A DNA stretch of 22,171 bases from a virus. The position numbers were made by a program, and so were the translations under genes. Positions 5,312-22,171 of this stretch are shown piece after piece (within the stretch, counting starts at the first letter, position 1; each line of letters starts with the position of its first letter). Where the stretch lies: IMG/VR virus record IMGVR_UViG_3300008954_002089, positions 1-22,171 of that record. The stretch is one strand, 5' to 3'. The notes beneath the pieces are model-generated. The model did no database searches. It was given only the letters and a program-made list of their open reading frames with translations, and was not told where the DNA came from.

Positions 5312-5629
5312 ATGACCACGACACGACAAGCGGTGGCACGCCTCAGACAATGCCAACAGGCAGGTACCGCAGACCCTGCCCTGAAAATCATCGACAAATT
5401 ATACACGATGGTCGAAGATGCCTTGACGATGACCAAAACTCCAGGGTCTCCTCTGTCCAAGGAACTCAAGCGTCTGGATCCTGGTTTCCTTGGTGACAGT
5501 AAGAAACTCCATGCTCTGCTCAGCCAAGCAAGTTCCTTGTTGGAAGACATGGAGATGGAGGTAAGTCAGGCTGGTGACGCGGACGAAGATTATGATGAGT
5601 CATCCACAGAGCAGGTACTGGACGGATGA
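5312..5629 (+). CDS. Unknown tag-B protein (105 aa)
   Basis: The frame is open from an ATG at 5261, but that start lies inside the previous gene. ATG 5312 has AAAGGAAG just upstream, avoids the overlap, and places MTTTRQAVARLRQC, a tag-B variant, at the N-terminus. The body is helical (ALKIIDKLYTMVEDALTM, KKLHALLSQASSLLEDME) and ends in a strongly acidic tail (DADEDYDESSTEQ). It overlaps the ligase gene as ATGA. No family is recognised. A protein-protein interaction role would fit the small size and charge, but this is speculative. Confidence 0.8.
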   Translation: MTTTRQAVARLRQCQQAGTADPALKIIDKLYTMVEDALTMTKTPGSPLSKELKRLDPGFLGDSKKLHALLSQASSLLEDMEMEVSQAGDADEDYDESSTEQVLDG

Positions 5630-6609
5630 AAAGGTTGAGGGAAGTGGCAGCGTATGAGTTCGATTTGACAGCCCTAAAGGCAGACCCTGGAGGTTATGCC
5701 TCAAAGTTGTCCGCTCGGCTGCTACGTCAGTTATACCGCCGGGCCAAGAACACGTACTACAAGGGAAGCCCTTTCTTGTCAGACGCCGAGTTTGACGCGA
5801 TTGAGGATACGTTCCGCCAGAGGTTCCCTGACAGCCCTTTGCTCCAAAAAGTAGGCGCTCCTGTCGATCAGGGTAAGAAACAAAAACTGCCCTATTGGAT
5901 GGGTTCCCTCGACAAGATCAAACCCAACACTCCAGACCTTGACCGTTGGTTTGACGCCAACCCAGGGCCCTACGTGGTGTCGGACAAGATGGACGGCATC
6001 TCAATGCTTATCATCTGTACCAAGGGCCGGTACCAACTGTTTACCCGAGGTAACGGTAAGGTCGGACAGGATGTAACGTCCATGGTGCCAATTCTTGGGC
6101 TTCCCAAGACACAGGACACCTTCGCGGTACGGGCCGAGATCATCATGTCCGAGACGGCGTTCAAGAAGTACGCCAAGGACTTCGCAAACCCACGGAATTT
6201 CATGGGTGGGTTGGTCAACCGCCCGGATGTCAGCCCTGCCCTCAAAGACGCCACCTTGGTGTGCTACGAACTCATCGTTCCACGCAAGAAACCCTCCGAA
6301 CAGCTCAACTACCTGAAACACCAGCTTGGATTCACGGTCGCTCCTGCCAAGGCCTATAAGGTCCTGGACGCCCAGACACTCTCTGACAGACTCATTGCGA
6401 GGCGGAAGAGCTCTAAGTTTGCCATAGACGGTCTGGTGGTCACACAGGACTCAATATACAAACGCGCCACATCTGGCAACCCTCGGTACAGCGTAGCCTT
6501 CAAGATGTTGATGGAGGATCAGATAGTGAAATGTAGGGTGGTGAGTGTAGAATGGAACGTGTCTAAGCATGGTATTTTGAAACCTACTGTCATAGTGGAA
6601 CCGATGTAA
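5626..6609 (+). CDS. ligA: NAD+-dependent DNA ligase, N-terminal fragment (adenylation domain and start of OB fold)
   Basis: A 327-aa fragment carrying the NAD-binding and nucleotidyltransferase parts of a LigA-type ligase. It has a domain Ia signature (YYKGSPFLSDAEFD, 44-57), MGSLDKI (92-98), the catalytic KMDG with Lys121, TRGNGKVGQDVT (140-151), VRAEI with Glu171, NPRNFMGGLVNR (188-199), FAIDGLVV (265-272) and AFKM (291-294). The chain enters the OB fold (HGILKPTVIVEP) and stops exactly where LigA proteins continue with the V-x-[VL]-[AG]-G strand. That continuation is encoded about 1.05 kb downstream at 7639-8607. The first residues, MKRLREVAAYE, match tag A, which ordinary LigA lacks. The start overlaps the previous stop (ATGA), and the stop overlaps the endonuclease start (TAATG). 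The role is sealing nicks during phage replication with NAD+ as cofactor. Confidence 0.93.
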   Translation: MKRLREVAAYEFDLTALKADPGGYASKLSARLLRQLYRRAKNTYYKGSPFLSDAEFDAIEDTFRQRFPDSPLLQKVGAPVDQGKKQKLPYWMGSLDKIKPNTPDLDRWFDANPGPYVVSDKMDGISMLIICTKGRYQLFTRGNGKVGQDVTSMVPILGLPKTQDTFAVRAEIIMSETAFKKYAKDFANPRNFMGGLVNRPDVSPALKDATLVCYELIVPRKKPSEQLNYLKHQLGFTVAPAKAYKVLDAQTLSDRLIARRKSSKFAIDGLVVTQDSIYKRATSGNPRYSVAFKMLMEDQIVKCRVVSVEWNVSKHGILKPTVIVEPM

Positions 6610-7646
6610 TGGGTATGTCTAAATCTCTCGAGGTAAGAGAACAAGAGTATATTAAATCCTTGGATTCTACTTTGGTAGGGTACCTTTCCGGGTATTCCGG
6701 TGTTCACGTACCTTGTAGCCATTATTGTAAGATCTGCGGTAATGGGTTTATAACTAAACCCAGGACCACGAAAAACGGGTTCCTTAACTGCCCTGCCTGC
6801 TCTGATAGGTTGCAGAATTTCCATTCGATGTGCAACCATATGACAGAAATCCGTAACTCTTCCTTTTATGTTATGGAAGGTTATCGTCGGTTGAAGAATG
6901 CCAAAAACCTGTATCAATGTAAGTTTTGTAATACCCAGGATTGGTATACCACAGAGGCTGTTAAACGTGGTGTTGGTTGTCGATCATGCAACCCGTCAAA
7001 ACATGGCCTACATACCACAGAGAGATACGGTGAGAGGTTGGAGAAATTAGGTAAAGCCCTACAGCCTATAGGAGTGTATAAGGGTATTAGTGTTCCAATA
7101 GAACATAAATGCCTTTCTTGCGGTGCCTTATTTACGGCCCGCCCTTCTTCCGTGTTGGCTAAACGAGGCTTGGCATGTAATGCTTGTTCCAGCACAAGAT
7201 TTTATCATTCTTATACGTTAGGTTCCCGGGTCGTTCAGGTACAAGGATATGAAGACCTAGCATTGGATTGGTTACTCCACAAAAAAGGGGTGGATCCTTC
7301 AAGGATCCGAGTATTTAGTGACCGCGAAGTGCCGGTTGTATATTACCAACTTGACGGAAAGAACCGTAGGTACTACCCCGATTTGTTCCTCCCGGACCGT
7401 AACATACTTATAGAAGTAAAGTCTTTACACACGGCAGGATTAACAAACCATAGATTACATAAAAGCTCCCCTGACCGTTTATGGCACATTTTGTGTGCTA
7501 AAGCCCGACAGACAATGAAGGATGGTTTTATCTTTCGACTTTTGGTTATGCAAAATGATAACGGCTCCCCCAAACGCATAGTTTTGCCACGAGGTTGGTA
7601 TCGGAAGACACGCACTCAGATTTTAAAGGGGATACACCATGGCTAA
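6609..7646 (+). CDS. Free-standing homing endonuclease, zinc-ribbon array plus PD-(D/E)XK nuclease, inserted in the ligase gene
   Basis: A 345-aa protein with two parts. Residues about 36-195 hold three spaced pairs of Cys-x2-Cys knuckles (CKICG/CPAC, CKFC/CRSC, CLSCG/CNAC), the pattern of repeated zinc ribbons that read DNA. Residues about 210-315 hold a restriction-endonuclease-like fold: GYEDLALDWLL, then RRYYPDLFLP with Asp258, then ILIEVKS with Glu269 and Lys271, the PD...ExK triad. The gene fits almost scarlessly inside the ligase. Its ATG overlaps the ligN stop (TAATG), and its TAA falls inside the ligC start region. Codon use is visibly more A/T-ending than in its neighbours, which suggests recent entry. 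The likely activity is cutting uninterrupted ligase alleles to copy itself in. A related domain is encoded on the minus strand at 21776-22171. Confidence 0.88.
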   Translation: MGMSKSLEVREQEYIKSLDSTLVGYLSGYSGVHVPCSHYCKICGNGFITKPRTTKNGFLNCPACSDRLQNFHSMCNHMTEIRNSSFYVMEGYRRLKNAKNLYQCKFCNTQDWYTTEAVKRGVGCRSCNPSKHGLHTTERYGERLEKLGKALQPIGVYKGISVPIEHKCLSCGALFTARPSSVLAKRGLACNACSSTRFYHSYTLGSRVVQVQGYEDLALDWLLHKKGVDPSRIRVFSDREVPVVYYQLDGKNRRYYPDLFLPDRNILIEVKSLHTAGLTNHRLHKSSPDRLWHILCAKARQTMKDGFIFRLLVMQNDNGSPKRIVLPRGWYRKTRTQILKGIHHG

Positions 7647-8607
7647 AAGTGTACGTCCTGGTGTTAGATTGGGAGGGGTAACTATCCGTCGGGTAACTGG
7701 TTTCAATGCCAAGTTCATCAACGACAACAAGGTAGGGCCTGGTGCGGTCCTCAAGATTACAAGGAGTGGAGATGTTATCCCGCATATTTTGGAGGTTGTT
7801 GCTCCTAGCCGCAAGGCAGGATTACCGGAAGACGGTAACTTTGAATGGACTTCCTCTGGTGTCGATATACGCGCCACGGGGGACACCGACGAACAGTTGG
7901 TAAAACAAATTGCTTGGTTTTTTAAGGCCATTGAAGTCGAAAACTTTGCTCAAGGTACAATCCAACGGTTGGCTACTCATGGAATCGACTCCATCGAAGC
8001 CGTTATCCGAGCCACGAAAAAAGACTTGATGGCGGTTCCTGGCATCCAGGATAAAACGGCCACCACCATCGTCACCGGGATTAAGAAAGCTTTGAATCCA
8101 GTGTCTCTGCCCGTATTGATGGCGGCTTCTGGGGTATTCGGTCCTGGCTTTGGTGTACGGCAGTTAACACCACTGGTTGAGAAATACCCGCAGATCATGG
8201 ATCTTAACAGACCTAACCCTCGGGACTTGGAGCATATGGCCCTGTCTGTATCTGGGTTCAGCAGTAAGCGTGCCAAGCAGTTTGCCCAAGGATTTCCCAA
8301 ATTCCAGGCCTTCGTAAAACCCATCAAACGCCTGATTACCATTGAAACACTAGGTCCTGTGGCTCCTCCAGAGGGTGACAAGATGTCGGGTGAGATTGTG
8401 GTGTTTACCGGCTTCAGGGATAAAGACTTACAAGAACAAATCGAACGTGAGGGCGGTACTATCGCCAGCGGCATCTCCAGGAAAGTGACAGTCCTGGTGA
8501 TGAAACTTAAAGGTACTGGCAGTTCCAAGGAGCGGAAAGCGGTTAACCTTGGCATCAAGATCATGACTAGGGAAGAGCTGGTTGAGACGTTCAACCTAGA
8601 AAAATGA
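7639..8607 (+). CDS. ligA: NAD+-dependent DNA ligase, C-terminal fragment (rest of OB fold, helix-hairpin-helix, BRCT)
   Basis: A 322-aa fragment continuing the ligase. VRLGGVTI (9-16) and RSGDVIPHILEVV (42-54) finish the OB fold. A HhH region includes VPGIQDKTATTI (133-144) and GVFGPGFGVRQL (165-176). A BRCT domain occupies about 250-320 (GEIVVFTGF, EREGGTIASGISRKVTVLVM). It has its own start and a Shine-Dalgarno sequence (AAAGGG, 8 bases before ATG 7639) supplied by the end of the endonuclease gene. The first eight residues (MAKSVRPG) have no counterpart in LigA and are probably acquired or intron-derived. The fragment contains no cysteine, so the four-Cys zinc finger normally between OB fold and HhH is absent. 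It must work with the 5626-6609 product, either as a two-chain enzyme or after RNA splicing. Confidence 0.92.
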   Translation: MAKSVRPGVRLGGVTIRRVTGFNAKFINDNKVGPGAVLKITRSGDVIPHILEVVAPSRKAGLPEDGNFEWTSSGVDIRATGDTDEQLVKQIAWFFKAIEVENFAQGTIQRLATHGIDSIEAVIRATKKDLMAVPGIQDKTATTIVTGIKKALNPVSLPVLMAASGVFGPGFGVRQLTPLVEKYPQIMDLNRPNPRDLEHMALSVSGFSSKRAKQFAQGFPKFQAFVKPIKRLITIETLGPVAPPEGDKMSGEIVVFTGFRDKDLQEQIEREGGTIASGISRKVTVLVMKLKGTGSSKERKAVNLGIKIMTREELVETFNLEK

Positions 8608-10958: not shown

Positions 10959-11606
10959 ATGACAGTCAGGCGTAATCAATATGCCCAACGTCGGGATGTG
11001 GCTCTATCACATGTTAAGTCGCAGCGGTTAAAAAAATCGCGGGCGGGCAAGGTCTCTTCCTCTCATAAAGAGGGGAGGCCCCCGTCTAGCGGCTTGACCA
11101 AGAAACAGCGTCAACAAGCACGTCGTTTGAAGAACCTGCGTTCTTTGTTTAAGGATGACGTAACAGAAATCGCATCCCTACTGGAAGACCAGCAGACAGA
11201 GAGCGCGGTCAATCGGTTTCAGCGTACTATGTTGAAGTCCCTGATGGACCTGATACCCATAGCAGAAGACAAGTACAGGCAGGAGGGTTCAGAGAGGGCT
11301 GCCTATGCCTTAAACAGTCTGGTTTCCCAAGCAAGGGAGCTAATTGCAGACATGCAGGCAGAGAGGGATGGTAGGCAACTGGCTCTGCAACTGTCATCGG
11401 AAATAATCGATCCCGCCTTTATCGGTATCGCGCAGGTGGTGATTGATAGCTTACACAATCTCAAGAGATCATTGGAAACCTATGTGCCAGAGCACAGGCA
11501 TCCTCAATTGAACAATTTGGCGCGTGAGAGTGCCGGTACGATTGCTCGATACATTGAGTCACAGCGAGGGCACATAAAGGAAAAGATGGTCGAATCAATG
11601 GAGTAA
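10959..11606 (+). CDS. Unknown helical protein with basic N-terminus (215 aa)
   Basis: Starts at ATG with GGGAG 5 bases upstream. The first 60 residues are strongly basic (SQRLKKSRAGK, TKKQRQQARRLKNLR) and probably disordered or nucleic-acid-binding. The remaining 150 residues are almost entirely helical with heptad-like Leu/Ile spacing (LKSLMDLIPIAEDKY, AAYALNSLVSQARELIADMQAE, GIAQVVIDSLHNLKRSL). There are no catalytic motifs. The layout, a basic arm followed by a helical bundle, would suit a DNA-bound structural or scaffold-type protein, but no family is recognised. Confidence 0.82.
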   Translation: MTVRRNQYAQRRDVALSHVKSQRLKKSRAGKVSSSHKEGRPPSSGLTKKQRQQARRLKNLRSLFKDDVTEIASLLEDQQTESAVNRFQRTMLKSLMDLIPIAEDKYRQEGSERAAYALNSLVSQARELIADMQAERDGRQLALQLSSEIIDPAFIGIAQVVIDSLHNLKRSLETYVPEHRHPQLNNLARESAGTIARYIESQRGHIKEKMVESME

Positions 11607-11611
11607 ACGGT

Positions 11612-11656
11612 ATGGATGGATACCTCGGGTGCCTACCTTGGTGGTTACAAGGATGA
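11612..11656 (+). CDS. Possible 14-aa leader peptide coupled to the HNH gene
   Basis: ATG 11612 has GGAG 8 bases upstream and encodes a 14-residue peptide (MDGYLGCLPWWLQG). Its TGA overlaps the ATG at 11653 as ATGA. The HNH start itself has only a weak site, so translation of this peptide could deliver ribosomes to it. The two adjacent Trp codons are notable. The evidence is positional only. Confidence 0.25.
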   Translation: MDGYLGCLPWWLQG

Positions 11657-11934
11657 CACGCTTTTATCGTAAATCCGGTGGGGTGACCCGTATCCAACGT
11701 CCTGGGTATGGGTCCCAGTGGGCCCAGTTATCAGCCCGTGTTCGTGAACGAGATAACCACACTTGTCGGTCATGTGGTGAGACCGCGTCAGCCCGTAAGG
11801 CGCGAGGTGGGAAGTTAGAAGCCCACCATATTCGCCCAAAGTCTAGGGGAGGTTCCGATTCCATGAGTAACTTGATGGCCGTGTGTGATCGGTGCCACGT
11901 CCGTAAACACAAACACATGAGAGGCTCACGGTGA
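11653..11934 (+). CDS. HNH endonuclease
   Basis: A 93-aa protein (a GTG start at 11629 would add 8 residues). It has the compact HNH layout: QWAQLSARVRERDNHTC, a first CRSCG knuckle, LEAHHIRPKSRGGSDS with the catalytic His pair, the Asn in SNLMAVC, and a second knuckle with CDRCH. All expected metal-binding and catalytic residues appear intact. In phages such small HNH proteins are either mobile homing nucleases or terminase-associated nickases. No terminase gene is near, so a mobile or free-standing role is more likely. The stop overlaps the next gene (GTGA). Confidence 0.88.
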   Translation: MTRFYRKSGGVTRIQRPGYGSQWAQLSARVRERDNHTCRSCGETASARKARGGKLEAHHIRPKSRGGSDSMSNLMAVCDRCHVRKHKHMRGSR

Positions 11935-12326
11935 AGGAGTTGGCGGTAAAGGTTCCTACATACACCGCAGAGATGGAGCGGTGGTTTGAGCATCGGACGG
12001 CCCGACACATTAAGTTAGTACAACGGGCTGGCACCTCTTTGTTCAGGTTCTTTGCTGATCCAGAGGACCTTACGTTGTTCAAGCAGCGTCTGAAGGGCCA
12101 TGATCGTACCAAGTATGGCCCTCAAGAGCGGGTGCCCTACATCTTCATTTCCTGGTGGTATAAGCACAAGGACACCCCTACACCTTATGAGTACCCTCCT
12201 GGGATTGAAGCCTGGACTCATCGTGCTTCTGAGCACCATGTGCGGATGAACTTACACCACCCCGAGGCCCATGGAGCGGACGACAGGATGCAAGATGTGG
12301 ATTTGGTGGACATGGTTGCAGACTGA
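11931..12326 (+). CDS. DUF5662-like protein, ends at a TGA replacing an expected Trp
   Basis: A 131-aa product starting at GTG over the HNH stop. It shows the DUF5662-type pattern: a helix starting WFEHRTARHIKLVQRAG, then GHDRTKYGPQERVPY with HDxTK, a Tyr/Trp-rich helix, HHVRMNLHHPEAHG and a final DVDLVDMVAD. The His/Asp arrangement suggests a metal-binding, HD-like helical fold, but no activity is established for the family as far as I know. Relatives continue as M-V-A-D-W followed by a helix. Here the codon after Asp is TGA (12324-12326), and the same frame then continues with the expected C-terminus (see 12333-12455). The first residues (MKELAVKVP) fit tag A. The TGA may be a mutation, a readthrough site or a sequence error. 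Confidence 0.8.
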   Translation: MKELAVKVPTYTAEMERWFEHRTARHIKLVQRAGTSLFRFFADPEDLTLFKQRLKGHDRTKYGPQERVPYIFISWWYKHKDTPTPYEYPPGIEAWTHRASEHHVRMNLHHPEAHGADDRMQDVDLVDMVAD

Positions 12327-12332
12327 GGTGGC

Positions 12333-12455
12333 ATGTCCCTGGAATTAGGAACCTCCTTAAGGGAATGGGCTGCCAAAGATATACCAAATTATTCTTTTAC
12401 CACTCAACAGGTCCAAACCATCTGGGACCTCGTAGACATGACAGGTATTAAGTGA
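12333..12455 (+). CDS. C-terminal segment of the DUF5662-like protein, in frame after TGA
   Basis: A 40-aa segment beginning at ATG 12333 in the same frame as the upstream gene, two codons beyond its TGA. MSLELGTSLREWAAKDI then an IWDLVDM helix matches how I recall DUF5662 proteins ending (A-M-S-x-E-x-G-T-S followed by E-W-A). GAGGTGG just upstream could allow reinitiation, giving a two-chain product. UGA readthrough as Trp would give a continuous protein of about 174 aa. It is unlikely to be an independent gene by origin. Confidence 0.6.
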   Translation: MSLELGTSLREWAAKDIPNYSFTTQQVQTIWDLVDMTGIK

Positions 12456-12462
12456 GGGCCCT

Positions 12463-13203
12463 ATGAAAGAACTTACACACATTGAGGAGGGTTCGGTTAA
12501 CCTCCAGTCTCTTGGGGTAGCAGCACGCCACCATGGTAAACGTCCTACCAAATCTGCTTATCCTCCACGGTTTAACCCTGATGCCCGGAAAATCTGGGAC
12601 AAGATGATGGCGTCCAAGGAGTTCTTGGGGATGATGGGGGCCCTGGGAACACCCGAAAGCCAATGGCGGATGGCGCTCTCCGAGTTCATGAAACGGGCAC
12701 GGAACGCCAATGTGGTGGCTGTTCAGGATACCTCAGGGGCATCGGCCAACAAACGTATTGAGAACTACCTTGGCAACGGTCGGCGTAAACTGGTGGCGGC
12801 TCTGGATAAAACAGGGCTCCTGTCAACGGCTCGCTTGATGAAACCTCATCGGTTGGTTGCTCAACGAAACTCTGGGTTCCTGATCACCAGCTCTGCCGAA
12901 TTGAAGGTCCCTACTCTATCGGCGTACGGGGACCTGGTGAAACAGTTATCTGGTCATGGGTTCACAATGCCCAGGGGAGGGTCCCTCCAGCGTCAGGTCT
13001 GCCCTGGGGTACGTGTACAGCTCAATCGTCGTCCAACCCTGTCCTACACCGTGGAGGTCCACCAGGACCCGGTTATTCGGGTAAGGGGTAATGGGGTAGT
13101 GTCAAAGAAGCAGTTCCTATCCTTTGTTGAACGGCGCCTTTGGTTGCCAGTTGTGAGGGCGAACCGCTTCAAGACCCTCAAAAACCCCAAGAGTTTATTC
13201 TGA
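12463..13203 (+). CDS. Unknown protein (246 aa), tag-A-like start
   Basis: ATG 12463 has GAGGG just upstream. The N-terminus MKELTHIEEG resembles tag A in its first four residues. The protein is basic, with a helical N-terminal half (ARKIWDKMMASKEFLGMMGAL, WRMALSEFMKRARNAN) and a more beta-like C-terminal half (SGFLITSSAELKVP, LSYTVEVHQDPVIRVRGNG), and ends with a basic segment (RRLWLPVVRANRFKTLKNPK). No family or catalytic motif is recognised. The basic charge would allow nucleic-acid binding. It is the last gene before a hairpin and the second putative promoter. Confidence 0.82.
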   Translation: MKELTHIEEGSVNLQSLGVAARHHGKRPTKSAYPPRFNPDARKIWDKMMASKEFLGMMGALGTPESQWRMALSEFMKRARNANVVAVQDTSGASANKRIENYLGNGRRKLVAALDKTGLLSTARLMKPHRLVAQRNSGFLITSSAELKVPTLSAYGDLVKQLSGHGFTMPRGGSLQRQVCPGVRVQLNRRPTLSYTVEVHQDPVIRVRGNGVVSKKQFLSFVERRLWLPVVRANRFKTLKNPKSLF

Positions 13204-13732: not shown

Positions 13733-16700
13733 ATGCGACGACTGAAACTAAGGATCCCGAACCGTAAAGTCATAAAGGGCCTGAAGGTACAACGCCGTAA
13801 CGGCGTGACCGGGCGTGTTAACACACGTTCCAGCTGGCAACGCCCGGTTCCATTGGTGTCCAAGGTCAAACCCTTCCATTATTTGGAAGAAGCAGGCGTT
13901 CGCAGCCAACTCCAGGCGGCAGTGCCTGAGCCCAAGTCTTTCAAGAAGGCTTTTTTGAAGCCTGTCCTGCATAAGTTTGGGGAGTTTGTTCGGCTGGCAG
14001 TAAGTGGGGCCCAGAACGAATTCATTACTCATTTTATGGATAACCTCCAGGTACAGCGGGACGAGCCCAAGGAGCCGAACCCAAGGTTAGCAATTTCTGA
14101 TGCCTCTCATGCAGCCATTGCAGAGAAAACCAACCAGATTCGTGTCAAAAAAGCCGATGATGGTTTCCTCCTTACGATCCCTCTTGGTGGTACCATTGGG
14201 GCCGCTTTTGATTTCTCCAGCATCGCACGCAGTGTTGATACCTATATGCCTTGGGGTGACAACAACCCAGAGGCCAACGCACTTAAACAACAAATGATTG
14301 AGGCGTTGAATAAATTCCCAGGTCCTGCCCTCTTCGACATATCCCAAGCAGTCGATCACACCTACAGGGCGTCTGATGCTGTTGAGACAAGCCCTTGGTT
14401 CGACCCCACCCATTCTGATTTGGCGGTTTCCAAGGACTCTCTGGCGTTGTTCAAAAAATACGTCAAGATGATCCGCCTCATGTCACCTCCGTTGGATGCC
14501 AAGGATTTGGGGTATGGTGGCGGTCTATACAATGAGTCCGACATCAACAAAGAGAGTCCACTGACCAGCATCAAAGACGCCGCCAATCCAATTGGATTCG
14601 CCGCACAGGCATTGAACTCTCGGGACTTCTTTACATCAATGGTGTTGCACGTTCCTGCTGAGTACGCGGAGTACATAATCCAAACGCCCTTTGCCCAGGC
14701 AGAAGCCAGTGACATGCTCTTGTGGAGTCAACAATGGATCCAAGGGTTGTTCAAGAAGGGTGAAAAGTGGCAACCGCGGATGAACCCCATCCGCAACATC
14801 CGTGACTCTAACAGCGATGTGCAGGGTGATGTGAAGCCTCGTGTTAACGAGGATGGTCTGTCCATCACCTTCCAAGGGGATTTGGTTTGGATTCCAACAT
14901 CTGATAACGTTGACGCCTATGACCAGGAAGTGAAAGATTTTGCTTCCCAACATGGTGGGGAAGAAGTCACCTTCCAGGATGTCAAACAACCATCTGGTCG
15001 GCGCCGTCGAGTATCTGTGGATGAAGGTGAAGAACCCGTCAAGCCAAAGAAACTCCCCGCCAATATGTTGGTGTACACAGACTGGGTAAACAACCGGCTT
15101 GCTTACACTGATACGAGTGCGGCTCTCAAAATCTGGAGCCTGGAAGGCTTTGCCAGTGGCCAGTCTACCGCGATTGCTTCTTTGTTGGAGCGTCCGTTGT
15201 TTGGATATAACGAGGAAGAAGAACTCTTAGAGAACCTCGGCCGCGCCGCCAACCGTTTGACTGACGGAGGTACCGACCTTAACTCTTTCATGGGTGATGG
15301 TCCCGTTGGTCAGTCGGATGAACTCTTGTCTTTGCTGAACCCTGCCCAGGCAGAAAAGTACAGCCCTGACGACAAGTACAGTGTACCTTGGGGTCTCCGC
15401 AACATCCTAGGAGGTTATTTTGACATGTCGCCAGGGGAGATCGTCAGGAAAGTACACTCCGCAGTCCGCGATCTGAAGACCTACTACGACTACGATCGGT
15501 CTGCCAACCCCGCTGATGTGCCTGAATGGGTGGAACAACATTCGTCCATGGATGACTGGAAACTCCACCTGGTGTCCTCCAACAGCCCTGTCCCGGCCCT
15601 CCGTCCCCTCGGGCGTATGGTCGAAGCCGCTTGGAAGTTGGTTGAGGGGGACCCGACAGCGGCCCTCTCAGGGCGTTCGGTACTAAACGGTATGAAAGAG
15701 GTTGCCCAACTCCTGTGTATTGCCAAGTACGCTTCCAAGTATGACCAGGTGGTTGCTGCTGACCTCAAGAGGCGCCAACCCTACATCGATCCACAGATCG
15801 ACCCCAACGCAGAGCCTACGGCTCTCCCTTATGTCGAAGGGTTTTCGTTCCTGCCTCATCAGATGAAGACCCAGAACTATCTTGTGCAGGATCCGCAGTT
15901 TGCGATCCTGGATGTGTCGCCGGGGGGCGGAAAAACGATTTTGATCTTGACGGACCTGATTCGGTTGGTCCAGGCTGGCAAGGTAACGCGAGGTATTATC
16001 TTGTGTCCTGGGTACTTGGTGCGGAACTACATTGAGGATGGCGTCTTCCTGTTCAAAGGGAAGATGAACATGATCCCAATCACCACCCAGACTTTCCGTC
16101 AATATGGAGAGGAAGGCCTCCAGAAAGTCCTGGAACAGGCACCTCGGAATACCATCGTGGTATCTGACTACGACTTCATCAAGGGTCGTGTCCGCGAAGA
16201 GTCCTACGGTCCAGAACCGATTAAGATTGGTGACAACAGCGAGATGCTGCGGTCCTTTGGGTTCGACTACATCGCGCTGGATGAAAGCCACAATGTCAAG
16301 AACCCAGCGTCCACTCGTAGCCAGGTTACTCAACGGCTAGCGGCAGATATCCCTTATCGTAGGCTGGCAACTGGTACCTTTGTTACTGACCAGATGACGG
16401 ATATTGTCGGTCAGTTTAACATGATCGACCCCGCTACCTTTGGCAATAGGAAAAAGTTCATCGAAGCCTATGCCTCGGATTGGCGTGGTGGAAAGGTCTT
16501 GAGCTGGAAGCCTGACGCTGAGCGGAAGATCGCCCAACGAGTAGGCCAGTTTTCCAACCTTGTTACCATTAAGAGGAAGGAATGGGCGGCTCTCCTGCCA
16601 AAGCGTGTGGAGAACTTCCACTTTGTCAAGATGAGGCCCAACCAACGGACGGTCTACGATTCGATCCTCAAGCAGACGTTGGAGCTCATCGCCCAAAACG

Positions 16701-19789: not shown

Positions 19790-20428
19790 ATGAGCGGAAG
19801 GTTTATTGCTATTGAGGGTGGTGAAGGTACAGGGAAGACCACCCTTTTGAAAGGTCTGATCCCTTGGGTTAAAGAGACCCAAGGGGTGGAGGTAGTCGTG
19901 ACAAGGGAACCTGGCGGGACTCCCGCTGGAGAAAGGATGCGTAGTATCCTTCTGGACCCAGAGACTGACCTATGTGGGGATGCCGAGTTATTGTTGGTGT
20001 CAGCCGCTCGTTGTCAACACGTACACCAGGTAATCCAGCCTGCTTTGGACCGAGGAGACTGGGTTATCTGTGATAGGTTTATTGACAGTACGTTCGCTTA
20101 CCAAGTAGGTGGTCGCCGTACTTCAGTTGACAATTTTCGGGCCGCTTCTGCCATGGCCGTCCAGGGAGTGTTCCCACACCTGACTCTTTTGTTGCTGATG
20201 GATCCGGTTAAAGCAATGGCCAGGATTGAACGTGGGTTGGATCGAATGGAACAAGAGGATCGGGCTTTCTTCGACCGCGTAGCCTACAACTTTGAGAACC
20301 TACACCGATCTCCCTTGTTCAGGGGCAGGTCAGTAGACCAAATCAATGCCGACCAACCACCAGAAGATATACTGGCAGCCGCCCAGTCTGCCATCCAAAA
20401 ACACCCTCAACTGGGAGCACGCCAGTGA
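19790..20428 (+). CDS. tmk: Thymidylate kinase (dTMP kinase)
   Basis: A 212-aa enzyme that phosphorylates dTMP to dTDP with ATP. Visible features are the P-loop GGEGTGKTT (10-18), TREPGGTPAGE (38-48) that binds dTMP, the DRF motif (95-97) followed by STFAYQ, and a LID region with ERGLDRMEQEDRAFFDRV (147-164). Length is normal for the family. An in-frame ATG at 19784 lies one base from the GGAG site. ATG 19790 is 7 bases from it and gives the usual MSGRFIAIEG start, so it is preferred. It is the first gene after the terminator and promoter copy 3 and overlaps the polymerase start (GTGA). It would raise dTTP supply for phage DNA synthesis. Confidence 0.95.
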   Translation: MSGRFIAIEGGEGTGKTTLLKGLIPWVKETQGVEVVVTREPGGTPAGERMRSILLDPETDLCGDAELLLVSAARCQHVHQVIQPALDRGDWVICDRFIDSTFAYQVGGRRTSVDNFRAASAMAVQGVFPHLTLLLLMDPVKAMARIERGLDRMEQEDRAFFDRVAYNFENLHRSPLFRGRSVDQINADQPPEDILAAAQSAIQKHPQLGARQ

Positions 20429-21819
20429 TAACAGACCGCCGGCAGATGCGTTATGTGACTTTCCAAAACGATCTTCCAGAGGGTTGGAGCCCAAAGGAAT
20501 GCCCCGCATTTGACGTAGCTATCCCTATAACGAAAAACTGGAAGACCGCCAGGCGCCGTGTTATTCTGGTGGTAGAACATGTGGATGGTAAAGACCTCAA
20601 GGAAAAGGCGTTATTGGATCGAGGAACCGGCGCCACCGTTGTCACGAACCTCCTACAATTTGCCCGCCGACAATGTGCTCTTGTCAACCCAGAATCCATT
20701 GAGGAATCGGTGGCTTATGCCACCATCAACTTCAATTTCTTCAAGACCTACCACCTCAAAGGTGCCCGACGTAAGCACGCCAATGATGCTGCTTCTAAGC
20801 GAGTAAAGGCGTTTGTTCGCAAGATGGATCCGACGAACGTGATAGTATTTGGGGATGAAGCGGCAGAATCCCTGTTACCCCGGGTGGATGACATTTCACA
20901 TAAAAGGGGTTGGCCCCATGCTATCAAAGTGCGAGGGAAGCCTGTCCTGGTCACCAACACCATACGGTACGACCACACCTATTTTTTGCGTGGTACCGAC
21001 ATGGACAATGACTCCGATGCCGAGAGTCAGACAAAGATGGATGAAGCCATCACCCAGGCCAATATTCTTGGATATATCGGACGCACTCTCATGTCGGCGT
21101 TTTTGGACCGACTCCCATTTACGGCCTCCGAGGTGCGGCCAAATCCAATCCTCATCGATACGTTGAGCAAGTTTAAGCGTATGATGAGGGTCATTAAACG
21201 GGCTCCCGTGGTTTCCGTTGACTCAGAGACCAAGAACCTGTCCGTTCATCATAACCAACTCCAGACCCTCCAATTCTCAGACAATCCCGACAGGGCTTTT
21301 ATCCTCCCTGTACACCATCGTGATACCCCATTCTCAGGATCAGAGTTCCGCACAATATTTAAGGAACTACGTGCCTACTTTGGGCAACGAGTGGAATGGC
21401 AGCCTAAATCCCCTCGTTATTTGGTTATGCACAACGCCAAATTTGACCTTCGTATTATACGTCAGGAGTTCGATCTCCCATTCATTTATTGGCCTGTTTG
21501 GGACACCATTGCCGGTGAGTTCTGTATACACCCAGAGTCTTGGGTGGTAACGGAACGTGGTATGGTACAAATGAAAGACTTGGTGGTTATGGGGAATCCT
21601 CCTCAGGTTTTATCATATAACCATAAAACACAACAGGAAGAATATAAACCACTTTTAGCTACTTCTACCCACCCAACAGACCAACGAATGGTGGAAATAT
21701 CCTATGAAGGGGGATCCATTCGCGTTACTGAAGACCATGAGGTTTGGTCGGTTACCCGAGGTTCCTATGTAAAAGCTAAGAACCTAACCTCTGACGATGA
21801 AGTTTTACTTCAGACCTAA
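20425..21819 (+). CDS. DNA polymerase (family A type), N-terminal half fused to an N-terminal split intein
   Basis: A 464-aa product from a GTG overlapping the tmk stop. Residues about 95-185 resemble a uracil-DNA-glycosylase fold (NVIVFGDEAAESLLP, KPVLVTNTIRYDH), as in SPO1-like polymerases; this is tentative. About 260-366 is a DnaQ-like 3'-5' exonuclease with motif I VSVDSETKN (Asp266, Glu268), motif II HNAKFDL (Asn337, Asp341) and VWDTIAGEF at the end. At Cys367 the chain enters an intein (see 21523-21819) and stops. The exonuclease motif III and the polymerase domain are therefore missing and must be encoded beyond the window. Its role would be proofreading and, with the distal half, phage DNA replication. 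The identity of the polymerase family is inferred from the exonuclease motifs. Confidence 0.85.
   Translation: MITDRRQMRYVTFQNDLPEGWSPKECPAFDVAIPITKNWKTARRRVILVVEHVDGKDLKEKALLDRGTGATVVTNLLQFARRQCALVNPESIEESVAYATINFNFFKTYHLKGARRKHANDAASKRVKAFVRKMDPTNVIVFGDEAAESLLPRVDDISHKRGWPHAIKVRGKPVLVTNTIRYDHTYFLRGTDMDNDSDAESQTKMDEAITQANILGYIGRTLMSAFLDRLPFTASEVRPNPILIDTLSKFKRMMRVIKRAPVVSVDSETKNLSVHHNQLQTLQFSDNPDRAFILPVHHRDTPFSGSEFRTIFKELRAYFGQRVEWQPKSPRYLVMHNAKFDLRIIRQEFDLPFIYWPVWDTIAGEFCIHPESWVVTERGMVQMKDLVVMGNPPQVLSYNHKTQQEEYKPLLATSTHPTDQRMVEISYEGGSIRVTEDHEVWSVTRGSYVKAKNLTSDDEVLLQT
21523..21819 (+). other. N-terminal half of a split intein (98 aa)
   Basis: It begins at Cys (block A, CIHPESWVVTERGMVQMKDL), continues with QVLSYNHKTQQEEYKPL, and carries block B RVTEDHEVW with the T-x-x-H motif, then YVKAKNLTSDDEVLL and a stop two residues later. 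The end just after block B and the length of about 100 aa match natural split N-inteins such as NrdJ-1. The C-intein should end in His-Asn and be followed by a Cys/Ser/Thr at the start of the rest of the polymerase. It is not in this window, and the minus-strand endonuclease lies in between. Confidence 0.88.
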
Positions 21820-22171
21820 CCTGTTTTCTGGTCTTTTGGTGTATGTCTTTAATAACAAGTGGACGGTAGTCAAGAGGGAGGGACCGTCCATAATGGACAA
21901 GGAGTGTCCTGAAATTGTAACCGGCCTCTTCCACACCCTTTGCCTTCATACGTAGCCGGTAAAACTCAGCCCCAGACTTGGTGGTTATACCCGCTGTATA
22001 CGTGCTTTTGACTTCAATAATAAACCATCGCCCTTTAACTTTGGCATAGATGTCAGGGTGATATATGTGGTACTTGTTTTTATTGTCATACCAAGGGATG
22101 GATGGCTTACCTTGTACCGCCGTCGTGTAAATTTCGTCTATAGAACACCCAAGTTCGTGGACAAGGTATTT
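21776..22171 (-). CDS. PD-(D/E)XK homing endonuclease, C-terminal part (5' end outside the window)
   Basis: Reading the minus strand from 22171 to a TAG at 21776-21778 gives 131 residues. The nuclease core is KYHIYHPDIYAKVKGRWF followed by IIEVKSTYTAG, with the same PD...E-x-K arrangement and spacing as the ligase-inserted endonuclease (RRYYPDLFLP then ILIEVKSLHTAG). A helical segment and a beta strand (FRTLLVHYG) follow, as in that protein. It overlaps the 3' end of the N-intein gene by 44 bases, tail to tail. It is most likely the homing endonuclease that mobilises the split-intein insertion. Its N-terminal DNA-binding region lies beyond the window. Confidence 0.82.
   Translation of the reverse strand, partial: KYLVHELGCSIDEIYTTAVQGKPSIPWYDNKNKYHIYHPDIYAKVKGRWFIIEVKSTYTAGITTKSGAEFYRLRMKAKGVEEAGYNFRTLLVHYGRSLPLDYRPLVIKDIHQKTRKQVRSEVKLHRQRLGS

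What the first reader, a model, noticed from the sequence alone, without database searches (positions are those of the whole stretch)
20425..22171. Polymerase split by a natural split intein with an antisense PD-(D/E)XK endonuclease between the halves
The polymerase exonuclease ends at WDTIAGEF|C and runs into a 98-aa N-intein that stops just after block B. A convergent nuclease gene begins to overlap it immediately. This matches the fractured-gene layout reported from metagenomes (Dassa et al. 2009), where split inteins flank a free-standing endonuclease, but the nuclease type here is PD-(D/E)XK. The insertion lies inside the proofreading exonuclease, before its motif III, so proofreading as well as polymerisation depends on trans-splicing.
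Basis: partly seen in the sequence, partly recalled or inferred. Interest (0 to 1): 0.85.

Follow-up and report, generated by a model that had tools for sequence, protein, structure and literature searches.

The report
Phage polymerase split by split intein
A large bacterial virus encodes its DNA polymerase as two separate genes that a self-excising protein element probably stitches together after translation, with a DNA-cutting enzyme gene lying backwards between them; the same layout turns up in a repair helicase of two other phages.

Summary
The window is a phage fragment. Two longer, near-identical records run past its end: polymerase N half with a 98-aa N-intein; an antisense 381-aa nuclease; then an ORF that starts with a 46-aa C-intein ending VLVHN|C and continues as the rest of the family A polymerase. 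The exteins align seamlessly to 7 intact phage polymerases. The other 77 of 79 viral loci examined (of 102 relatives found) lack an insert there. The class 1 splicing residues are present. The nuclease is DUF7487 with a PD..EVK motif. No other family A, B or C polymerase was found in the two records. The layout recurs in helicases of Yersinia phage fHe-Yen9-02 and Dickeya phage JA33, and the same phage has a second split intein, in its clamp loader. Best reading: a new variant of the known 'fractured gene' arrangement, tolerated through trans-splicing and mobile through the nuclease; both activities are inferred. Correction: the matched polymerase domain lies in the C half, so only proofreading clearly needs splicing.

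The parts
20425..21522 (+). N-extein of the family A DNA polymerase (366 aa): a weakly UdgX/UDG-like N-terminal region, then the 3'-5' exonuclease up to ..VWDTIAGEF, holding the first two exonuclease motifs
   Evidence: ORF; PF01612 residues 243-352; TIGR03914 residues 91-205, E 2.1e-4, far under its cut-off; aligned to 7 intact phage polymerases
21523..21816 (+). N-intein (98 aa), Cys1 to ..DDEVLLQT; block B TEDH present; stop codon TAA at 21817-21819
   Evidence: TIGR01445 24.8 bits, over cut-off; PDB match to NrdJ-1 intein, E 2e-6; leave-one-out profile E 3.6e-20
21776..22171 (-). C-terminal 131 aa of the antisense DUF7487 PD-(D/E)XK nuclease (381 aa in full from a GTG, or 352 aa from an ATG); overlaps the N-intein gene by 44 bp
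   Evidence: PF24308 29.4 bits for the part in the window, 98.6 bits for the full protein; the rest is L002:11352-12497. The C-intein (L002:12411-12548) and the C half of the polymerase (to L002:14483) lie outside the window at window-equivalent 22835-24907

Best explanation
A phage family A DNA polymerase gene has been invaded by a split-intein cassette: N-intein, an antisense PD-(D/E)XK (DUF7487) nuclease gene, C-intein. The two halves are translated separately; the intein fragments associate and, by the class 1 mechanism (Cys1, block B Thr/His, terminal His-Asn, Cys+1), excise themselves and ligate WDTIAGEF to CLDENMK, restoring an unscarred 1010-aa polymerase with a complete proofreading domain. 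The nuclease is most likely a homing endonuclease that cuts uninterrupted polymerase alleles of co-infecting phages, so that repair copies the whole cassette in. Shown: gene order, ORFs, splice-site residues, exact junction, empty sites in relatives, recurrence of the layout. Inferred: splicing activity, cleavage specificity, homing.
For: Both halves and the nuclease are read directly from two longer records. Joined exteins align with no gap or surplus at the junction to 7 intact phage polymerases. tblastn matches of the C half in cultured phages begin at residue 46-49 in the 40 records listed of 316, that is right after the 46-aa C-intein. Empty site in the 77 of 79 viral loci that are not this phage. 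The class 1 residues named in PMC4031507 (passages read) are present. Closest solved intein is NrdJ-1 (that it is a natural split intein of phage type is recalled). The clamp loader of the same phage has a related split intein (N parts score 119 against a shuffle maximum of 52 in 1000, C parts 69 against 37). The layout with an antisense DUF7487-type nuclease recurs in helicases of fHe-Yen9-02 and JA33. The nuclease's residues 85-226 match a PHROG family named homing endonuclease, E 2e-11. A GAGGT sequence precedes the C-half ATG.
Against: No experiment. The C-intein is below the TIGR01443 cut-off (11.6 against 15.6 bits), matches PF14890 only at E 0.12 and finds no PDB match. No selection test is possible: the records carry no differences in this region. 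Of 25 DUF7487 loci examined (some the same place twice) only 3 have the nuclease between split-intein halves, so the nuclease is not tied to inteins. The nuclease model is confident only in its C-terminal domain and its fold matches are middling.
Confidence: 0.85

Rival explanations
1. The intein is inactive and the two polymerase fragments work as a non-covalent complex, as reported for the split NrdA of phage Aeh1 and the split polymerase of Aeromonas phage 25.
For: Such cases exist (PMC2988022, passages read); the DNA ligase of this same phage is broken by a DUF7487 nuclease without any sign of an intein; the matched polymerase domain is in the C half.
Against: The splicing residues on both sides are intact and the extein junction is exact; a dead intein would be expected to lose these. 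Related split inteins with intact termini occur in two other phages.
Confidence: 0.07
2. The nuclease is not a homing endonuclease for this site but an independent gene that settled in an existing intein, with no current role in its mobility. (Compatible with active splicing.)
For: In 21 other DUF7487 loci (some the same place twice) no split intein was found nearby; in seven of these whose neighbours I read (L031, L119, L120, L121, L131, L132, L133) it stands between or beside other genes. Antisense orientation with its own start means no need for co-expression.
Against: Three insertions, in different genes or sites, lie between N- and C-intein in the same orientation and with a similar tail overlap of 44, 64 and 69 bp; the PD..ExK residues are conserved (one relative, L119, has SD for PD); a PHROG homing endonuclease family matches its residues 85-226.
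Confidence: 0.15
3. Assembly or sequencing artefact: a chimera, or a frameshift in a contiguous intein.
For: The records are metagenomic and may come from related samples.
Against: Two longer records are identical over 21.4 kb and agree with the window; the insert is a complete 381-codon antisense gene, not a frameshift; the same layout is in isolate genomes.
Confidence: 0.01

Closest known systems
Fractured genes: split inteins with a free-standing endonuclease gene between the halves (Dassa et al. 2009; paper not held; content recalled, its citation seen)
   Same: Conserved DNA-metabolism enzyme broken in two by a split intein, a free-standing endonuclease gene in the gap, phage setting.
   Different: Host gene here is a family A polymerase, inside its exonuclease; the nuclease is DUF7487 with PD..EVK instead of the Vsr-related EDxHD type; it is antisense and overlaps the N-intein gene. 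Whether any 2009 locus was antisense or in polA could not be checked.
Split-intein helicases of Yersinia phage fHe-Yen9-02 (OR620964) and Dickeya phage JA33 (MH460462)
   Same: IntN half, antisense DUF7487-type nuclease overlapping its 3' end by 64 or 69 bp, then IntC half.
   Different: Host gene is a repair helicase (ResIII/XPB-like matches in fHe-Yen9-02, annotated so in JA33), at two different sites (FVDE|C and TPKRKD|C); the features listed there name no intein, and JA33's nuclease is not annotated.
NrdJ-1 split intein (PDB 8ubs)
   Same: Best solved relative of the N-intein, E 2e-6, residues 13-96 of 98 aligned.
   Different: Different host protein; no PDB match of the C-intein at E up to 1.
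CapR/DUF4379 plus EDxHD/Vsr-like homing endonucleases in phage group I and II introns (PMC12350094, passages read)
   Same: The third DUF7487 nuclease of this phage and those of JA33 and GR7B carry DUF4379 matches over cut-off before the nuclease domain; the ligase nuclease only a weak one, 15.4 against 24.5 bits.
   Different: The polymerase-locus nuclease shows no DUF4379 or CapR match and lies between split-intein halves; relation of the nuclease domains was not tested.
Genes in pieces: Aeh1 nrdA/mobE and phage 25 gene 43 (PMC2988022, passages read)
   Same: A homing endonuclease gene splits a phage replication gene; this phage's ligase fits this class.
   Different: No intein there; the fragments work without being ligated.

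Membership tests
Class 1 intein, naturally split | Cys/Ser1, block B Thr and His | tested here: met
   CIHPES.. and VTEDHEVW in the N-intein; feature list from PMC4031507
Class 1 intein, naturally split | Block F Asp and His, terminal His-Asn, Cys/Ser/Thr+1 | tested here: met
   VCDVTVQDNHNLF (Asp, then His seven residues on) and VLVHN|C in the C-intein ORF; block assignment by eye
Class 1 intein, naturally split | Split between blocks B and F into two separately translated ORFs | tested here: met
   Stop codon ends at L002:11395, new ATG at L002:12411, 1,015 bp between
Class 1 intein, naturally split | Recognised by an intein C-terminal profile | tested here: inconclusive
   TIGR01443 11.6 bits, under its cut-off of 15.6; a profile of three related split inteins does find it, E 2e-6
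Class 1 intein, naturally split | Ligation of the exteins in trans | not testable with these tools
   Needs protein experiments
Fractured gene arrangement | Conserved enzyme gene broken by a split intein with a free-standing endonuclease gene between the halves | tested here: met
Fractured gene arrangement | Endonuclease of the Vsr-related EDxHD family (half of the 2009 loci, recalled) | tested here: inconclusive
   Pfam gives DUF7487; motif is PD..EVK; Vsr is not among the 50 rows shown, of 451 chains with Z >= 2
PD-(D/E)XK nuclease (DUF7487) | Profile match over cut-off and conserved PD..(D/E)xK | tested here: met
   PF24308 98.6 bits, cut-off 27; P, D, E, K invariant
PD-(D/E)XK nuclease (DUF7487) | Fold | tested here: inconclusive
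   Best rows TnsA Z 7.5 and Hjc resolvase Z 6.6, below 8; no Foldseek match at E <= 0.001; model confident mainly from about residue 231 on
Homing endonuclease | Cuts intein-less alleles and promotes copying of its own gene | not testable with these tools
   Inferred from position, empty sites in relatives and a PHROG homing endonuclease match
Family A DNA polymerase | Polymerase motifs A, B, C and three exonuclease motifs (labels recalled) | tested here: met
   PF00476 E 2.4e-36 in the C half; exonuclease motifs I and II in the N half, III and polymerase motifs A-C in the C half

The most novel reading that the evidence does not exclude
Split inteins with an antisense DUF7487 nuclease are a distinct, still-moving class of cassette that preferentially lands in replication and repair genes of large phages. 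In this phage the polymerase and the clamp loader are both fractured by related split inteins (and the ligase is in pieces without one), so that assembly of an accurate replisome waits for two trans-splicing reactions; before splicing the C half could act as an exonuclease-free polymerase.
Probability: 0.3. Interest if true: 0.75.

Novelty: new variant of a known kind. Interest (0 to 1): 0.62.

Why it matters
It adds a split family A polymerase, broken inside its proofreading domain, to the fractured genes, and gives a set of related natural split inteins (polymerase, clamp loader, two helicases) that can be tested directly and could extend the protein-ligation toolbox. The antisense nuclease with its tail overlap, seen in three places, helps to test how contiguous inteins become split: the endonuclease gene landing in the intein may itself be the break. 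Two of the three examples are in cultured phages, so homing crosses are possible.

Tried and rejected
Intron instead of intein: no Rfam match in the window at gathering scores, none up to E 1 around the ligase break, and only two chance-level miRNA rows around the polymerase break. Contiguous polymerase elsewhere: not found in the two longer records, but these are linear records of unknown completeness. More split polymerases: the 3 loci found with the N half are this same phage, and so are 2 of the 79 found with the C half. PDB search with the C-intein alone: nothing. PDB search with the full nuclease by sequence: only one chance row, E 2.6. The antisense mini-ORF between the clamp-loader halves (L016:7377-7502) looks to me like the tail of a Vsr-like nuclease, but a PDB search gave nothing relevant, so the 'relic' is only an impression. 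TnsA or Holliday resolvase as identity of the nuclease: fold neighbours only, Z under 8. The contiguous intein of the portal protein is no near relative: its C part scores no better than shuffles (363 of 1000 reach it) and its N part only slightly better (54 against a maximum of 46), and the split-intein profiles miss it, so those profiles have limited reach. Literature: no paper with DUF7487; none holding 'split intein', 'antisense', 'endonuclease gene', 'bacteriophage' and 'polymerase' together; in the listings I saw no split family A polymerase, but of those papers I read only abstract starts and passages (PMC7090010, PMC2988022, PMC3653736, PMC10448857, PMC12350094, PMC7765530, PMC4031507; of PMC3229294 only a reference-list place, of PMC10343443 that and one results passage). 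Dassa 2009 and the I-Bth0305I paper are not held.
Full report
What is there. ORF 20425-21819 (+) encodes the first part of a family A DNA polymerase. A weak UdgX-like match (residues 91-205, E 2.1e-4, far under its cut-off) is followed by the 3'-5' exonuclease (PF01612, residues 243-352), which stops at VWDTIAGEF. From Cys367 on it is an N-intein of 98 aa (TIGR01445 24.8 bits, cut-off 24.5), with block B TEDH, ending before a TAA at 21817-21819. A minus-strand ORF runs from 21776 to the window's end, overlaps the N-intein gene by 44 bp and carries PD..IIEVKS.

What lies beyond the window. The window is a 22,171-bp virus record. The search for related loci brought two longer records of the same phage, L002 (from a 168.9-kb record) and L003 (from a 128-kb record), identical to each other over 21,392 bp and 99.95% identical to the window over 11,747 bp; against the whole window the 168.9-kb record has 8 mismatches, none in the polymerase. 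In L002 the nuclease is 381 aa from a GTG (11352-12497, minus). A second plus-strand ORF begins at 12411 with MVTRTVRVKSVKVVDSPPMVCDVTVQDNHNLFICNEISDKPVLVHN, a C-intein of 46 aa, and goes on as CLDENMKVLMLYG.. to the end of the polymerase at 14483. The nuclease ORF has an in-frame ATG at 12410 which abuts the ATG of the C half head to head (CATATG); with that start it is 352 aa and does not overlap the C half. A GAGGT stands upstream of the C half's ATG. Which nuclease start is used is not known.

The junction. The joined exteins (1010 aa) align with seven intact phage polymerases (1017-1085 aa) with no gap or surplus at the junction: WDTIAGEF|CLDENMK against WDTIAGEY CLDENLK in Vibrio phage GR11A, and similar in the other six. 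tblastn with the C half finds 316 phage records, and the 40 listed begin at query residue 46 to 49. In viral contigs 102 relatives of the C half were found and the best 79 distinct loci returned. Two are this phage; the other 77 read straight through the site (44 by a motif, the remaining 33 by inspection of the open frame). Several of these are near-identical records. The insertion therefore looks recent or rare, and its ends are exactly those of the intein.

Is it an intein? The residues named for class 1 splicing in PMC4031507 (passages read) are present: Cys1, block B Thr and His, block F Asp and His, terminal His-Asn, Cys+1; and the break lies between blocks B and F. A profile of three related split inteins without this one finds the N part at E 3.6e-20 (70.0 bits) and the C part at E 2e-6 (25.7 bits) in the six-frame translation of the record; one of the three is the clamp-loader intein of the same record. 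In 77 polymerase loci used as negatives only one, L107, gave significant matches, and that is a contiguous intein elsewhere in its polymerase. Against this stands that the public C-terminal profile scores the C part under its cut-off (11.6 against 15.6 bits). The best solved relative of the N part is NrdJ-1 (E 2e-6).

What depends on splicing. The exonuclease profile is itself divided: positions 3-99 in the N half and 107-166 in the C half, the latter under the cut-off on its own. Exonuclease motifs I and II are in the N half, III in the C half, while polymerase motifs A, B and C are in the C half (motif names recalled). Proofreading should thus need both halves; polymerisation may not. No other family A, B or C polymerase was found in the two long records, which may be incomplete.

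The nuclease. It matches DUF7487 (98.6 bits, cut-off 27), and its residues 85-226 match a PHROG family named homing endonuclease (E 2e-11). P, D, E and K of the motif are invariant in two alignments. The model is confident mainly from about residue 231 on; its best fold neighbours are TnsA (Z 7.5) and archaeal Holliday junction resolvases (Z 6.6), PD-(D/E)XK enzymes, with a mitoribosomal protein tied with the latter; Z stays below 8 and there is no Foldseek match at E <= 0.001. Three DUF7487 genes lie in the 168.9-kb record.

Recurrence. Searching cultured phages with the N-intein (19 records at E up to 0.01) led to Yersinia phage fHe-Yen9-02: a helicase ends FVDE|C + N-intein, an antisense 352-aa ORF follows (DUF7487 26.5 bits, just under the cut-off of 27, with PD..LIEVKS), then a C-intein ending VLVHN|C and the helicase C half. 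Searching with two nucleases led to Dickeya phage JA33 (JA11 has the identical nuclease): the repair helicase is split at TPKRKD|C, with an unannotated antisense ORF of 367 aa (DUF7487 66.1 bits) between, and VLVHN|C at the other end. In all three the nuclease gene overlaps the tail of the N-intein gene (44, 64, 69 bp). I scanned 25 DUF7487 loci (some the same place twice) with profiles built from these split inteins: the nuclease lies between the halves in 3 of 25; 21 show no split intein, and the clamp-loader intein in the remaining one is some 9 kb from its DUF7487 gene. Sensitivity is limited. Among the 21, L125 has the nuclease between the two parts of a gp32-like single-strand DNA-binding protein. 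DUF7487 nucleases are thus general phage invaders, of which some sit in split inteins.

The same phage. Its clamp loader (DnaX-like) is split at FILDE|CHQLT by a second split intein with a 226-bp gap; in the 128-kb record the N-intein profile finds only the portal and polymerase ones. It is related to the polymerase one: alignment scores 119 and 69 against shuffle maxima of 52 and 37 in 1000 shuffles each. Its penultimate residue is Ser instead of His. A contiguous intein with a LAGLIDADG domain sits in the portal protein. The ligase in the window is broken by a sense-strand DUF7487 nuclease with no sign of an intein and no Rfam intron.

How it most likely works. The cassette moves by the nuclease cutting uninterrupted alleles and being copied in by repair; the split intein makes this harmless by re-joining the polymerase. 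Splicing is likely (about 0.9) from intact residues; homing by this nuclease is likely but less sure (about 0.75) from position, conserved catalytic residues and recurrence. Neither is shown.

Relation to the known. The arrangement is that of fractured genes (Dassa et al. 2009, recalled; not held). The points that look new are the family A polymerase as host, the DUF7487 nuclease, its antisense and overlapping placement, and its recurrence in two cultured phages whose records do not annotate it. I could not check whether any 2009 locus was antisense. Homing endonucleases with CapR/DUF4379-like repeats and a Vsr-like domain were described in phage introns in 2025 (PMC12350094, passages read) and resemble some of the DUF7487 nucleases here in their repeats. 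Split phage replication genes without inteins are known (PMC2988022, passages read).

Noticed in passing
window 5626-8607: NAD-dependent DNA ligase in two ORFs (5626-6609, 7639-8607) with a sense-strand DUF7487 nuclease (6609-7646) between, overlapping them by 1 and 8 bases; the break falls in the OB-domain region between EP and VRLGG, where three intact phage ligases read through; no intein seen, no Rfam intron. A gene in pieces like Aeh1 nrdA.
   Followed up: yes
L016:6729-8553 (G001:26729-28553): Second split intein in the same phage, in a DnaX-like clamp loader at FILDE|CHQLT (Walker B, label recalled); 226-bp gap holding most of an antisense 41-codon ORF that may be a nuclease remnant.
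   Followed up: partly
L018:6710-9961, minus strand: Contiguous 489-aa intein with a LAGLIDADG match in the portal protein of the same phage.
   Followed up: partly
L016:17044-18342, minus strand: Third DUF7487 nuclease of the phage, with four DUF4379 stretches, overlapping by a few codons a 6-pyruvoyl tetrahydropterin synthase gene and a phosphoribosyltransferase gene on the other strand.
   Followed up: partly
L128:2748-5845 (OR620964.1) and L130:2497-5603 (MH460462.1): Helicases of Yersinia phage fHe-Yen9-02 and Dickeya phage JA33 broken by split inteins with an antisense DUF7487-type nuclease between the halves; not annotated as such.
   Followed up: yes
L129:3045-5509 (OP617745.1): Klebsiella phage KP13-7 nrdA broken by a split intein with a sense GIY-YIG nuclease gene between the halves.
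   Followed up: partly
L107:2433-5849: Contiguous small intein inside a related phage polymerase, at a different site.
   Followed up: no
L092, L095, L098, L101, L105: Related polymerase loci with an extra stretch of roughly 0.2 to 0.8 kb near residues 734-780 of the polymerase; no Rfam match at gathering score.
   Followed up: no
L125:4100-6315: DUF7487 nuclease between two ORFs that match the two ends of a gp32-like single-strand DNA-binding protein; no Rfam intron at gathering score.
   Followed up: partly
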